DNA from: an uncultured Spirochaetaceae bacterium
GTDB taxonomy: Bacteria > Spirochaetota > Spirochaetia > Sphaerochaetales > Sphaerochaetaceae
Length of the DNA stretch: 64,000 nucleotides
Assembly (NCBI GenBank): GCA_944389505.1
Contig: CALXMP010000001.1
Span: 1 to 64,000, forward strand
Direction of reading: 5' to 3'
The notes beneath the pieces were generated by a model. It was given only the letters and a program-made list of their open reading frames with translations, made no database searches and was not told the origin of the DNA. The position numbers were made by a program, and so were the translations under genes. Of the stretch, positions 5,409 through 12,939 are shown piece by piece. Positions within the stretch are counted from its first letter, which is position 1, and each line of letters starts with the position of its first letter.

Positions 5409-5657
5409 GACTGAGGATGCGAGGCGCTTTTGTCAGTATTCAATATGAAAATCCATTTCAGATAGGTAATTCCATTGAAGAATATTATCACTTTGAATAT
5501 TCCTGAGAATTCAGAGAATAACCAGAAGCCCGGATATTGGATTCTTATTCAGCCCTTTAGGGCGAAGTGAATAAAAACATTTGTTATGACACACCCCGTA
5601 ACTGATATCCCTACCGATGCCGTTTTGATGAACTAATCGTTATTCGGATAACATAAA
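5409..5657. other. Non-coding gap upstream of ileS
   Basis: About 250 bases without a convincing ORF or RNA gene. It holds one modest inverted repeat near 5545-5575 (TTATTCA and TGAATAA arms around GCCCT/GGGC). I see nothing else in it. Confidence 0.4.
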
Positions 5658-5690
5658 AGGCACCCTCTGGATCACTCCTCTGGGTGCCTG
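5654..5690 (-). terminator. Intrinsic terminator after the 5.7-7.0 kb gene pair
   Basis: AGGCACCC (5658-5665) pairs with GGGTGCCT (5682-5689). On the minus strand the stem is followed by TTTT and sits 25 bases after the stop of the lipoprotein gene. The plus strand also has GTTTTCC after the stem, so it may work both ways. Confidence 0.85.
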
Positions 5691-5714
5691 TTTTCCTTTA
5701 TGGAATCAGCTGAT

Positions 5715-6206
5715 TTACTCAGCTGCTGGTTCTTCGACCGGCTCAATAAGTCCTACAGCAATTGCAGTTGCCCTTGCCTTAACTCTTCCCTCCTGTGTCT
5801 GGATTGTATATGAAGGGAACGTGAGGAATGCTGCACCTTTTTCCCTTGCGTTCTCTATCATCTCCGATACAGCATTAGCCATCGCAACAGCTCCCGGATC
5901 CCTGTCATCGAATTTATCAGGAGTGTAGTACATCCGTGCATCTTCCTGGTTCTCAAGAGTTCCATAGGCACCAGTGTCCCCATCCTTCGGATTATCCGCA
6001 CTGACATCCCCGAAACCCTCGACCATTCCGAGTATCACCAGATGATCATTGTCGAAATCCTCAAGCGATGTAACGGGTATGTATCTCTGAGGGAACATGC
6101 CCGCATCAGGATATTCATATTCATCCTCTTCCAGTGGTTCGGTGCTCTGGCATGATGGGAGCAGAAGCGGCAGAGCCGCAATCAGCAATATAGCATATTT
6201 TCTCAT
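5715..6206 (-). CDS. Small predicted lipoprotein of unknown function
   Basis: 163 residues with a clear lipoprotein signal: MRK, a hydrophobic core and LPSC with C19 as the likely lipidated residue. The mature N-terminus is acidic (a Glu/Asp/Tyr-rich linker), then a globular part with no domain I can name. The segment near residues 115-150, with a predicted helix followed by ARATAIAVGLI, looks like a small alpha/beta fold. GGAGG lies in front of the ATG. It follows the 240-residue envelope protein by 22 bases and is closed by the terminator at 5654-5690, so the two genes form an operon. Confidence 0.8.
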   Translation of the reverse strand: MRKYAILLIAALPLLLPSCQSTEPLEEDEYEYPDAGMFPQRYIPVTSLEDFDNDHLVILGMVEGFGDVSADNPKDGDTGAYGTLENQEDARMYYTPDKFDDRDPGAVAMANAVSEMIENAREKGAAFLTFPSYTIQTQEGRVKARATAIAVGLIEPVEEPAAE

Positions 6207-6228
6207 ATTTCCTCCTCTGTTTAATCAA

Positions 6229-6951
6229 TCAGAAAGCAATTCCTGCAAGTGCATAAGCATTAAGCCCTACATCAAAAACAGTTACTACGATGTTATCATA
6301 GCCATAAGAATAATAATTGCCCCCTCCAAAGCCGATCTGAACCGACAACCCTCCTCCGACATATACAGGGCTGTTAGGAATCAGATATACCAGACCAGCA
6401 TCACAATATGTCATGATCGAACATATCACCGGGCAATACGATTGTCCTGAAGCGTAGCTATAGTAACTCTGCCCTATGCCTACCGAGAGACCTGTATATT
6501 CATAGACATAAAGATTCGGGTTAATCATCTGCCTGAATGCGGCGCCACCCCTTAGCGTCCCCATGATAAATCTATCAATAAAGGCAATATCGAATTGGAG
6601 ATGATACCCGATTGAATGAGCCATATCCTTTTTCGCGGTTCTCTTCTCGGCCATCTCTTTCTCTGCCATCCTCTCGATATAACCTTCAGGAAAATATCTT
6701 GAAGGCAGCACTCTGCCATTCGAGGGGATTATGGTTTCTTCAACCGAATCCTTGTTCTTCAGCAGATTGCCTGCGACATAATCCGTAAAACCAACAGAGA
6801 AATTCGCTGCCACCGGATAGATATTCAGCTGCGAAACAAATCCCAGCTCCGAATACAGCATGGAATTCTGTGGTTTAGCGGCGAATATACCTGTAATCAT
6901 GACAACCGATAATATGAGAATAAAAAGGATTCTTCTCATCTCCACCCCCAT
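6229..6951 (-). CDS. Predicted outer-membrane or periplasmic protein, unknown
   Basis: 240 residues with a signal peptide (MRRILFILILSVV... ending near FAA). A Lys/Glu-rich charged loop around residues 95-110 separates an N-terminal region from a Gly/Tyr/Ser-rich C-terminal half with alternating hydrophobic residues. The protein ends in Phe (AGIAF), which is common for outer-membrane beta-barrels. A barrel is an inference only. The start could be the ATG at 6951 or the second one at 6939; neither has a well-spaced Shine-Dalgarno sequence. It is cotranscribed with the lipoprotein downstream. Confidence 0.7.
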   Translation of the reverse strand: MGVEMRRILFILILSVVMITGIFAAKPQNSMLYSELGFVSQLNIYPVAANFSVGFTDYVAGNLLKNKDSVEETIIPSNGRVLPSRYFPEGYIERMAEKEMAEKRTAKKDMAHSIGYHLQFDIAFIDRFIMGTLRGGAAFRQMINPNLYVYEYTGLSVGIGQSYYSYASGQSYCPVICSIMTYCDAGLVYLIPNSPVYVGGGLSVQIGFGGGNYYSYGYDNIVVTVFDVGLNAYALAGIAF

Positions 6952-7047
6952 AGCTTGACCGCTATGAAATCATAGTAACAGCACAAACTGAAGAATGCCA
7001 TATTTTCTTGGCAATGAGCGGAAGGTTATATCAAAATTTACAAAAAC

Positions 7048-7061
7048 TGTAGAATTCTACG
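7048..7061. repeat. 14-bp palindromic repeat, left copy
   Basis: TGTAGAATTCTACG, containing the perfect 12-bp palindrome GTAGAATTCTAC (7049-7060). The identical 14 bases recur at 8403-8416 directly after the ATPase gene, in the same orientation. This copy sits 7 bases before the -35 box of that gene. Confidence 0.9.
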
Positions 7062-7068
7062 TTTTCTG

Positions 7069-7097
7069 TTGATTCACCACTCCATCAGCATTAGAAT
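7069..7097 (+). promoter_or_regulatory. Leaderless-type promoter of the solitary ATPase
   Basis: TTGATT (7069-7074), a 17-base spacer, TAGAAT (7092-7097), then six bases and the ATG at 7104. The transcript would start at or next to the start codon. No Shine-Dalgarno sequence is present. Confidence 0.65.
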
Positions 7098-7103
7098 ACA
7101 GAT

Positions 7104-8399
7104 ATGGAAATCAGGCGGGATGAATACATAGCTAAACTGGAAAGGCTCAGAGGAAACGGCCGGATAAAGATCATCACAGGACTCAGAAGATGCGGTAAAA
7201 GCTATCTGCTCTTCAGGCTTTTCAAAAACCATCTGCTTGATAAAGGCGTAAAAGAAACTTCGATTCTGGAACTATCCCTTGAGAATCTTGAAAATGCCAG
7301 ATACCGCAATCCATTCGCACTTCTCGACTACTTCAGATCACGGATGGAAGACATCCACGGTCAATGCTATATATTCATTGATGAAATCCAGTTCTGCTCC
7401 AGTATGGATAATCCGGACAGTCTAGGGGATAAAATCACATTCGTAGATGCATTGCTTTCCCTTTCAAAGCATCCTGAGGCCGATATCTACATTACAGGGA
7501 GCAATTCAAAGATGCTCTCCAGCGATATACTGACTCAATTCAGGGACAGAGGAGATGAAATAAAGGTCTTGCCTCTTTCCTACAGCGAATTCTACGAAGC
7601 ATATCCAGATAAAACAAATGCATGGCTCGATTACATGACACATGGAGGTATGCCATATTCACTTCACCTATCAAATCATGAAGAGAAAGCGGAATACCTA
7701 AGGAAGCTTTTCAGACTGACTTACATAAGAGACATAGCTGAAAGAAACAACCTATCGGAGAGAGACCAGGAAGCCATCGGCATAATCCTGGATTTCCTCT
7801 CCTCTGCCATAGGTTCTCTTACCAATCCTTCCAGGCTTGAAAACAGATTCATATCAGAGAGAAAGATGAAAATCTCCCACAATGATATTTCCCGGCTGAT
7901 CGGATACATCGAGGATGCATTCATCATATCTTCCTCAAAGCGTTACGATCTCAAGGGAAATGCTTATTTCGATACACCTCTGAAGTACTACTTTACGGAT
8001 ATCGGTCTGCGCAATGCCCGTATAAATTTCCGCCAGACTGAAGAGACGCATACCATGGAAAACATTATTTACAACGAACTGATCCGGCGTGGATGCAGTA
8101 TTGATGTAGGCGTTGTCGAGTCGATAACCAAGAATAAGGAAGGTAAAAGCCAGAGATCAAAGCTGGAAATCGATTTCGTAGTCAATTCATCCGGACAGAG
8201 GATATACATACAGAGTGCATTCTCTGTCTCTGAGAAGGAAAAACAGAACCAGGAAACGCGTTCACTGAAGATGGTTCATGACTCCTTCAAGAAAATAGTA
8301 ATCACCGGTGACAGAATCTATCCATGGTTCGACCAGGATGGCATATATTATATTAATCTCCAGGATTTTCTCCTGAACAGGAATTCTCTTGTTTTCTAA
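7104..8399 (+). CDS. Solitary AAA-family ATPase (AAA_14/DUF4143 type)
   Basis: 431 residues. Walker A is GLRRCGKS at residues 26-33 and Walker B is FIDEIQ at 91-96, followed by a sensor-like ITGSNSKML. The C-terminal half matches the DUF4143 part of this family. The LEIDFV motif near residue 352 resembles the acidic part of a nuclease-like fold, but I cannot prove catalytic residues. Such ATPases are widespread, scattered, often present in several copies per genome, and of unknown function. The gene stands alone, has its own leaderless promoter, and is bracketed by identical palindromic repeats 43 bases before the start and 3 bases after the stop, which suggests that gene and repeats move or act as a unit. 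Confidence 0.9.
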   Translation: MEIRRDEYIAKLERLRGNGRIKIITGLRRCGKSYLLFRLFKNHLLDKGVKETSILELSLENLENARYRNPFALLDYFRSRMEDIHGQCYIFIDEIQFCSSMDNPDSLGDKITFVDALLSLSKHPEADIYITGSNSKMLSSDILTQFRDRGDEIKVLPLSYSEFYEAYPDKTNAWLDYMTHGGMPYSLHLSNHEEKAEYLRKLFRLTYIRDIAERNNLSERDQEAIGIILDFLSSAIGSLTNPSRLENRFISERKMKISHNDISRLIGYIEDAFIISSSKRYDLKGNAYFDTPLKYYFTDIGLRNARINFRQTEETHTMENIIYNELIRRGCSIDVGVVESITKNKEGKSQRSKLEIDFVVNSSGQRIYIQSAFSVSEKEKQNQETRSLKMVHDSFKKIVITGDRIYPWFDQDGIYYINLQDFLLNRNSLVF

Positions 8400-8402
8400 A
8401 GT

Positions 8403-8416
8403 TGTAGAATTCTACG
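8403..8416. repeat. 14-bp palindromic repeat, right copy
   Basis: Same 14 bases as at 7048-7061, with the 12-bp palindrome at 8404-8415. It begins 3 bases after the TAA of the ATPase gene. Both copies are followed by a short T run. Confidence 0.9.
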
Positions 8417-11139: not shown

Positions 11140-11825
11140 TTATAGTGCCTCAGAGCCTGCTGCATTCTCAATAGCTTTTAGCCATGCATCGAATAATGGA
11201 ACTGAATTCCTCATCTGGTCAACCCCTATCCTTTCCGCAATCGGAATCCCTGTTACTGTCTTCTTGTATGAAGGAAACCACTGCTCAAGCCTTTTCGAAG
11301 GAGCTGTTTCCCGGCTGTTGTTGATTCTTTCCAGATCACCGGAGAACTGGATGATGACATCATCTATCCTTTCCTTCCTGATATTCAGCCCATCGGCAAG
11401 AATCTCTGTATCGCTGAAAAGCAATGTCTCAAACTCATGCACAATGAAAAAGGGAATGAGCCTATGCTCTACAGGCATATCAGGAAGCAACTCCTTAATT
11501 TCATTTTTAGTGTTTGCGACAAGAATCTGCTCAATCTGAGCAGGGGATGAATTCATAGGAATGCTATCCAGCCCCGGCCACTCAGCAAGTCCATAGTAAT
11601 CGAGGAACAGCGTGACATGGTATCCTCTCGCTGTTTAAGGTGCCTGATGATGTCATTCCTTACCTTGACGAATTTGACGTCACCGCCCTTTTGACCTGGC
11701 TTCGATACCTGGGTGGCATGCATCCCGATATTCCTGTATCCAAGGTATGGGGCAAGTATGCTATTGATGAATTTCTCTTCTGTAGCTCCCTCAACGATAG
11801 CTATGGCTTCTGCATACCTATTCAT
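11140..11825 (-). pseudogene. DUF4276-family protein, frameshifted
   Basis: Two overlapping frames encode one protein. The upstream frame starts at ATG 11825 (GGAGG eight bases before) and reads MNRYAEAIAIVEGATEEKF..., then GQKGGDVKF and LKQREDT. The reading then continues in another frame from about 11618 as VTLFLDYYGLAEWPGLDSIP and runs on to 11140. Restoring one base near 11617-11618 gives one continuous DUF4276-like protein of about 228 residues. The EG-x-TEE-x-F start resembles TOPRIM-type nucleases (inference). The start overlaps the stop of the ATPase gene, so the two formed a unit. The break may be a real mutation or a sequencing error. Confidence 0.8.
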
Positions 11826-12939
11826 TGACAGGACCTCCATCAAGGACATTCTTCGTCCATAGCTCTCCTACAGAATAATCTTCAAGCCAGACAGAGAACG
11901 AGTCAGGATCAAGATGCTTCAGAACAGAAGCACCCTTCTCCCTGCCCATTACGATGATATCATCAATACCAAACTGATCGATTAGGAGCGGAGACTGCGT
12001 AGCAGCAATTATCTGAGATCTCTTTGATGCGGCTCTTAGCAGTTCTGCAAGTATCGATATAGCAGCAGGGTGAAGCCCAAGCTCCGGCTCATCAATGACA
12101 ATCGTTGATGGTGGATCAGGCTGTATCAGGGCTGCGGCAAGACAGATGAAACGTATCGAACCGTCGGACAAATGATAAGGCTGCATAGGGAAATCCGAAC
12201 CTTTCTGCTTCCACGTGAGCCTGACCTTCGAAGCATCCCCCATCTGGACCGGATCAAGGATGAAATCATCAAAGAAAGGCATCACAAGGCGGACAGATTC
12301 CCTTATCTCATCATAGTTCCTTGGATATCTATCCCTGAGATTCAGGAGAAATGGTGCAATGTTCGAAGCATTCTCCCGAAGTCTTTTATTATCCTCTACT
12401 ATCTCATATCGCCGCATCGGAGCCGTCGGGCTGGTATCGTGGAAATGGTAGACCATCCAGTTTGATATGGAATCATAGACATAATACCCCGCGCCCCTGT
12501 ATTCAGGGAAAGACTCATTCAGCTCTTCTTTCTGCTCCGGCAGCCTGCTTTCCAGGGAGGTATCACCATAATCCCTCCAGGAATCAGCATCAAACCTCCG
12601 CCTTTCAGACAGAAGAAATGTGGAATCAACGGTAGGCCTGAATTCAGCATCATATGAATTGACGCCATTCCCTGATGAGATGAAGTCAAAAGCAATCTCC
12701 ATCTTACTGGTTTCCTTCGGTCCATTGAAAAGGAAGCTGTCCGCGCCCCCATTGCTGCGGATATAGTCGGAGAACCTATTATTGATCATTGCTGAGAGCA
12801 TATGGAAAATCTGGATGAAATTGCTTTTACCTGCCCCATTGGCTCCTATGATGATATTCAGATCATTCAGCTTGAAATCAACTACCTCCCGGAAGGATTT
12901 AAAGCCTTTTATTGTGATATTCCTTATGCCTCTGTTCAT
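11818..12939 (-). CDS. AAA-family ATPase (AAA_21/OLD-like), partner of DUF4276
   Basis: 373 residues, ABC/SMC-like ATPase without a coiled-coil insert. Walker A is GANGAGKS at residues 32-39 and Walker B is VIDEPELGLHP near 278-288, with a QSPLLID switch segment after it. The family pairs with TOPRIM or DUF4276/DUF4435 partners in OLD- and PARIS-like phage defence, so a defence role is likely but not proven. Here the partner gene directly downstream is frameshifted, so the system may be inactive. GAGG lies before the ATG, and an extended -10 (TGC-TATGAT, 12980-12975) lies upstream, divergent from the yidD promoter. Confidence 0.88.
   Translation of the reverse strand: MNRGIRNITIKGFKSFREVVDFKLNDLNIIIGANGAGKSNFIQIFHMLSAMINNRFSDYIRSNGGADSFLFNGPKETSKMEIAFDFISSGNGVNSYDAEFRPTVDSTFLLSERRRFDADSWRDYGDTSLESRLPEQKEELNESFPEYRGAGYYVYDSISNWMVYHFHDTSPTAPMRRYEIVEDNKRLRENASNIAPFLLNLRDRYPRNYDEIRESVRLVMPFFDDFILDPVQMGDASKVRLTWKQKGSDFPMQPYHLSDGSIRFICLAAALIQPDPPSTIVIDEPELGLHPAAISILAELLRAASKRSQIIAATQSPLLIDQFGIDDIIVMGREKGASVLKHLDPDSFSVWLEDYSVGELWTKNVLDGGPVNE

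What the first reader, a model, noticed from the sequence alone, without database searches (positions are those of the whole stretch)
7048..8416. Solitary ATPase framed by identical 14-bp palindromic repeats
TGTAGAATTCTACG occurs 43 bases before the start and 3 bases after the stop of an AAA_14/DUF4143-type ATPase, and I found it nowhere else in the window. Each contains the perfect palindrome GTAGAATTCTAC. By chance, two exact copies hugging one gene are very unlikely. The pair could be the ends of a mobile unit, a target-site duplication, or operators and ends recognised by the ATPase itself. The left copy sits just before the -35 box. These ATPases are common but have no known function.
Basis: partly seen in the sequence, partly recalled or inferred. 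Interest (0 to 1): 0.7.

Follow-up and report, generated by a model that had tools for sequence, protein, structure and literature searches.

The report
Travelling ATPase gene with paired palindromes
A stand-alone ATPase gene, of a family listed only as a candidate anti-phage defence, carries its own short palindromic DNA sites before and after it; relatives in many bacterial phyla carry different palindromes, usually around the promoter, so the gene probably travels with its own control switch, which gives a first handle on a very common protein family whose function is untested.

Summary
TGTAGAATTCTACG lies at 7048-7061 and 8403-8416, and its core occurs nowhere else in the 2.1-Mb genome. 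A congener's 60%-identical ATPase, at an unrelated locus, is framed by the same sequence. I compared about 210 homologues (AAA_14+DUF4143, PADLOC PDC-S01) from many phyla. Many carry one or two copies of a palindrome whose sequence differs by protein clade (e.g. TGCGGATATCCGCA, TGCAACATGTTGCA, TTTCGCAATGCGAAA). Two copies usually sit 73-76 bp apart (minor clusters near 64 and 84 bp: 6, 7 or 8 helical turns), with a sigma-70-like promoter between them. About 10% also have a copy just after the stop codon. In a second clade (including another gene of this genome) all eight members with both flanks visible are framed by direct repeats. Best reading: an autoregulated, horizontally moving single-gene unit whose product binds these sites; in the window one operator is upstream of the -35 box and its partner at the 3' end. 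Target-site duplication and terminator readings fail. Transposon ends are possible but unproven: a relative with no 3' site also inserted cleanly, with an 84-bp host duplication and an empty site in two congeners. DNA binding and regulation are inferred, not shown.

The parts
7048..7061 (.). Left palindromic site (S1), TGTAGAATTCTACG, just upstream of the -35 element; A/T-rich flanks as in relatives (AAAAAC..GTTTT)
7069..7097 (+). Promoter-like pair TTGATT-17-TAGAAT; the transcript would be nearly leaderless
   Evidence: weak consensus match, number of matches at chance level
7104..8399 (+). 431-aa AAA_14/DUF4143 ATPase (PADLOC PDC-S01). Predicted fold: residues 1-310 AAA+ plus winged helix (STAND/ORC-like), 311-431 PD-(D/E)XK-like with the usual catalytic Lys replaced
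8403..8416 (.). Right palindromic site (S3), 3 bp after the stop codon; one solo copy survives in relative G019, which lacks the gene here

Best explanation
This is a horizontally moving single-gene unit: a PDC-S01-type AAA+ ATPase with a PD-(D/E)XK-like tail that carries its own DNA-binding sites. SHOWN by sequence: the palindromes belong to the gene rather than to the location; each protein clade tends to have its own palindrome; usual placement is one site upstream of the -35 box and one just after the -10 box, about 6, 7 or 8 helical turns apart, and in some clades (window, G017, the GTCCG clade, three mycoplasma-type loci) a copy follows the stop codon. INFERRED: the ATPase itself (as an oligomer) binds the two sites, bridges them into a loop and represses its own promoter; infection or another signal, or ATP state, releases it so that the protein is made only when needed. 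In the window the promoter is nearly leaderless, so there is no room for a site after the -10 box; the partner site is at the 3' end and the loop would enclose the whole gene. How the unit is moved (its own protein or host recombination) is not known.
For: Same 14-mer on both sides of the ATPase in G000 and G017, with no similarity in the outer flanks. Among 208 distinct homologues 48% have two similar upstream sites against 7.5% in mismatched controls, with spacing peaks at 73-76 bp and minor clusters at 62-68 and 82-86 bp. A strict palindrome-pair test gives 46/208 against 2/133 in a control region. The best sigma-70-like promoter lies between the two sites in 29 of 35 cases. Half-site identity tracks protein identity (Mantel r 0.58, p 0.001). 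Direct repeats on both sides: 11% in the genus (control 0.4%), 9% across phyla (control about 0.5%). All eight members of a second clade with both flanks visible are framed, with differing repeat sequences. The gene is solitary in the window and G017 with different neighbours, so the ATPase is the likeliest binder. Model: AAA+/winged-helix fold closest to archaeal ATPases 2QEN/2FNA, then NLR/STAND and Cdc6/ORC proteins, some solved bound to DNA. PADLOC PDC-S01, E 1e-102.
Against: No binding or expression data exist. Residues of the putative winged-helix recognition helix did not correlate with half-site type; the best columns were scattered and leaned towards the C-terminal domain. About half of the homologues show no clear site pair with these methods. 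The window itself lacks the canonical second upstream site. The Mantel result reflects partly shared ancestry, and site detection preferred palindromes.
Confidence: 0.6

Rival explanations
1. The palindromes are the recombination ends of a minimal mobile element: the ATPase/PD-(D/E)XK protein binds both copies, synapses and moves the DNA between them.
For: Window, G017, the GTCCG clade and three mycoplasma-type loci are framed close to the start and stop in unrelated contexts. In G017 the right copy lies about 15-20 bp from a truncated araC gene that is intact in G045. The family is spread over many phyla, plasmids and viral contigs.
Against: Most relatives have both copies upstream and none at the 3' end, yet one of these (L154) inserted cleanly. 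No known transposase fold; the PD-(D/E)XK-like domain lacks the usual catalytic Lys (YIQSA). One framed copy per genome for this motif; G019 lost the gene by a deletion that kept the last bases of the gene and the right site, not by end-to-end excision.
Confidence: 0.13
2. Another host regulator binds the palindromes; the ATPase is only a passenger of a shared regulon.
For: No direct proof that the ATPase binds.
Against: The window motif occurs nowhere else in the genome, so there is no regulon with the exact motif; sites differ between clades and accompany the gene across phyla.
Confidence: 0.1
3. The downstream copy is a relic of a lost tandem neighbour (its upstream site), with no role.
For: Tandem ATPase genes exist (L045, L058, L063, L088); some downstream copies are farther away (L189 +210, L187 +270).
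Against: Window and G017 keep an exact copy 3-18 bp after the stop despite 40% protein divergence and different flanks; the second clade keeps one in 8 of 8.
Confidence: 0.12
4. Chance, target-site duplication or a transcription terminator.
For: The right copy can fold as a weak RNA hairpin, -11.2 kcal/mol, z -2.7.
Against: Repeated in a sister locus; no terminator found by scan; left copy identical but upstream of the promoter; a target duplication would change with each site.
Confidence: 0.05

Closest known systems
PDC-S01 phage-defence candidates (PADLOC; AAA_14 PF13173 + DUF4143 PF13635)
   Same: The protein matches along its whole length. The literature describes PDC-S01 as an ATPase fused to a PD-(D/E)XK domain and the fourth most common defence across prokaryotes, with experimental validation pending for most such candidates (PMC12988326)
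   Different: The cis sites, their clade specificity and the promoter architecture were not found in the papers searched
Archaeal ATPases SSO1545 (2FNA) and PABY2304 (2QEN)
   Same: Closest solved folds, Z about 17.6 over about 265 residues, rmsd 3.2-3.5
   Different: 19% identity; the match covers only residues 1-308
Two-operator looping repressors (Gal/Lac type; own knowledge)
   Same: Two palindromes around a promoter, spaced by near-whole helical turns
   Different: Here the candidate binder is a single AAA+ ATPase; in the window the second site is 1.35 kb away at the 3' end
Palindrome-associated single-gene elements such as REP/RAYT (own knowledge)
   Same: One gene flanked by short palindromes that match the protein's clade
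   Different: No tyrosine transposase, no scattered copies of the palindrome in the genome, and the sites coincide with promoters

Membership tests
PDC-S01 / AAA_14-DUF4143 | Full-length profile match | tested here: met
   PDLC04787 E 1e-102; Pfam AAA_14 and DUF4143
PDC-S01 / AAA_14-DUF4143 | Anti-phage activity | not testable with these tools
   Needs an infection assay
Autoregulated two-operator promoter | Two palindromes flanking the promoter | tested here: inconclusive
   Met in many relatives; the window has one upstream site and one at the 3' end
Autoregulated two-operator promoter | Helical phasing of the sites | tested here: met
   Spacing clusters at 62-68, 72-78 and 82-86 bp in the family; not applicable to the 1.35-kb spacing of the window
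Autoregulated two-operator promoter | Own product binds the sites | not testable with these tools
   Needs purified protein
Transposable element | Terminal repeats at both ends | tested here: met
   S1 and S3 in window and G017; not in most relatives
Transposable element | Recognisable transposase or recombinase | tested here: inconclusive
   Only AAA_14 and DUF4143 found; structure search of 311-431 gives weak PD-(D/E)XK matches such as McrC and Bax1 (E about 0.002)
Transposable element | Target-site duplication | tested here: not met
   In the window no direct repeat beyond the palindromes within 1.2 kb; long host duplications exist at other loci (L154, L171)
PD-(D/E)XK nuclease, catalytically intact | (D/E)xK motif | tested here: not met
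   YIQSA in place of (E/Q)xK; E319, E355, D357, Q370, K380, E384 invariant, so a moved Lys is possible
Intrinsic terminator (right copy) | GC-rich stem plus U-run | tested here: not met
   One search found none; hairpin is followed by 4 U only

The most novel reading that the evidence does not exclude
The sites serve two purposes: the AAA+/PD-(D/E)XK-like protein binds its clade-specific palindromes both to control itself and to mobilise its own gene, making PDC-S01 a new class of single-gene mobile defence element that inserts at gene 3' ends with duplications of roughly 75-170 bp of host DNA.
Probability: 0.1. Interest if true: 0.85.

Novelty: new variant of a known kind. Interest (0 to 1): 0.6.

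Why it matters
PDC-S01-type ATPases are among the commonest suspected defence genes in prokaryotes, but what they do is untested. Cis sites that travel with the gene and vary by protein clade give a ready-made DNA ligand, a promoter to use as a reporter of the inducing signal, and a way to test whether these proteins are self-regulated sensors or self-moving genes.

Tried and rejected
Chance: rejected by the sister locus and family statistics. Target-site duplication for the palindromes: rejected. Terminator: scan negative. Regulon of another factor: exact motif absent elsewhere in the genome. Attempt to tie half-site type to the winged-helix recognition helix: negative, with phylogeny only partly controlled and half-sites of some members assigned by eye. 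Attempt to find precise empty sites between G000 and its close relative G019 for four other ATPases: flanks mostly not shared. Empty sites for L166 and L205: neighbours not conserved in the genomes searched. For L171 the upstream gene is present without the ATPase in five congeners, but the downstream neighbour is not conserved. PDB sequence search: no relatives; NCBIfam: none. VIA-align was not run on the 311-431 domain alone. The other solo copies of the 12-mer in related genomes (L003, L004, L007-L010) look like chance: L004, L008 and L009 share one sequence context, and no ATPase gene was seen beside the ones I examined.

Full report
Observation. The framed gene is a 431-aa AAA_14/DUF4143 ATPase that matches PADLOC's PDC-S01 phage-defence candidate along its whole length (E 1e-102). 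It sits between ileS and the CCA-adding enzyme, next to two orphan genes on the other strand.

Not chance. Among 40 genomes searched, congener G017 holds a second pair, 1380 bp apart, and it frames a 60%-identical ATPase in a different neighbourhood: sites 57 bp before the start and 18 bp after the stop, with 26-bp extended repeats AAAAAnTGTAGAATTCTACGTTTTTT. Outside the sites the two loci share nothing. G022 has two copies upstream of its ATPase (the 3' end is cut by the contig end), and G042 one exact and one degenerate copy upstream. So the motif belongs to the gene. The other solo 12-mers in related genomes look like chance.

Family-wide pattern. I collected homologues from 48 congeneric genomes, 80 loci from many bacterial groups and 17 viral contigs. 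Many have one or two palindromes of the form TGnnnnn/nnnnnCA or TTTCGCAnTGCGAAA upstream, with the sequence varying by clade. Examples: TGCGGATATCCGCA-type sites in Lachnospiraceae, Succinivibrio, Bacteroidaceae and spirochaetes; TGCGTAAATACGCA; TGCAACATGTTGCA; TTTCGCAATGCGAAA. Similarity between the -150..-78 and -76..-10 regions passes the threshold in 48% of 208 genes against 7.5% for mismatched genes, and the spacings cluster at 62-68, 72-78 (main) and 82-86 bp. A stricter palindrome-pair test gave 46/208 against 2/133 in a control region. In 35 clear cases the best sigma-70-like promoter lies between the sites in 29, typically with -35 near -80 and -10 near -50. Half-site similarity follows protein similarity (Mantel r 0.58, p 0.001, 38 genes); shared ancestry contributes to this.

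Downstream copies. Direct repeats between the two 150-bp flanks exceed chance in 11% of congeneric and 9% of other homologues (controls 0.4% and about 0.5%). L234 has three copies (-115, -37, +18). Three mycoplasma-type loci with unrelated flanks share ATTTAATAAAAATGCGTATTTA-like repeats at about -50 and +10 to +15. In a second clade that includes another gene of this genome (G000:C5:6425-7684), all eight members with at least 54% identity and both flanks visible are framed by direct repeats; six carry CGGAC-N-GTCCG inverted repeats on each side and two carry different sequences. Framing is therefore a recurrent variant of the architecture, and the window is one example.

Mobility. Some loci have a second kind of repeat: long direct duplications of host DNA (about 54-170 bp) whose right copy often starts 4-7 bp after the ATPase stop. 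In L154 it is 84 bp, the 3' end and terminator of the upstream gene. Two congeners of that genome have the two neighbours directly adjacent with a single copy and no ATPase. There the inserted unit runs from the upstream site to the stop codon and has no 3' palindrome, so a 3' site is not needed for insertion. In L171 the same kind of duplication (85 bp) is present, and five congeners have the upstream gene with no ATPase after it. How these duplications arise is unknown; uptake by homologous recombination with an illegitimate second join is as possible as a dedicated mechanism. At the window's own locus, close relative G019 has lost the gene but keeps one perfect copy of the right site with the last bases of the ATPase gene beside it (TGTTTTCTAAA), so it is a deletion scar, not a clean empty site. 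Most other congeners examined have no site between ileS and cca.

Protein. The model (mean pLDDT 91.8) shows an AAA+ core with winged helix (1-310) most like archaeal ATPases 2QEN/2FNA, then NLR/STAND proteins and Cdc6/ORC proteins. The C-terminal domain (model pLDDT 87.8) resembles PD-(D/E)XK nucleases such as McrC and Bax1, weakly; the usual ExK Lys is replaced (YIQSA), while E319, E355, D357, Q370, K380 and E384 are invariant. A search for residues linked to half-site type gave no support for the winged-helix recognition helix.

Mechanism. I favour autoregulation: the ATPase binds two palindromes on the same face of the DNA, loops out its own promoter and stays silent until a signal releases it. 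In the window the nearly leaderless promoter leaves no room for a site after the -10 box, and the second operator is at the gene's 3' end. The sites, their placement and their co-travel with the gene are shown by sequence; binding, looping and induction are inferred. One published observation is compatible but not specific: an AAA_14/DUF4143 gene of Thermus thermophilus rose 6.6-fold when plasmid DNA and Argonaute were both present (PMC4406477).

Novelty. The family is known; its function is untested in the literature I could search, and I found no description of these sites. I call it a new variant of a known kind.

Noticed in passing
window 11140-12939 (-): An AAA_21 ATPase matches HEC-01A (E 1e-133) and the next ORF (11140-11556) matches the C-terminal half of HEC-01B; the N-terminal half may be the separate ORF 11553-11849, so HEC-01B may be frameshifted.
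   Followed up: no
L271/L272 (NZ_CP133466, NZ_CP082843): A 2630-bp circular 'plasmid' of Prevotella nigrescens holds only a related ATPase and a restriction specificity fragment; the same ATPase lies among Mpi-invertase-associated restriction genes in another strain, so it may be an excised piece of a phase-variable locus.
   Followed up: partly
L274 (NZ_CP113443): On an Acinetobacter plasmid the ATPase lies near BREX-like genes (WYL, DUF1819, DUF1788); 173 Acinetobacter plasmids carry a homologue, about 30% identical in the rows listed.
   Followed up: no
L126 (G044), L127/L269 (G046), L128/L270 (G051); window 5433-8400: The ileS-cca intergenic region is a hot spot for differing inserts in close relatives; in G044 the start of what looks like a different ATPase gene lies next to cca.
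   Followed up: partly
L256 3703-3921 (G017): Downstream of the framed ATPase in G017 lies the C-terminal fragment of an araC-type gene that is intact in G045 (L364).
   Followed up: yes
L019 (G006), -137..-7 and +57..+187: A 131-bp duplication downstream of the gene includes the ATPase's own promoter and site, perhaps a relic of a tandem copy.
   Followed up: no
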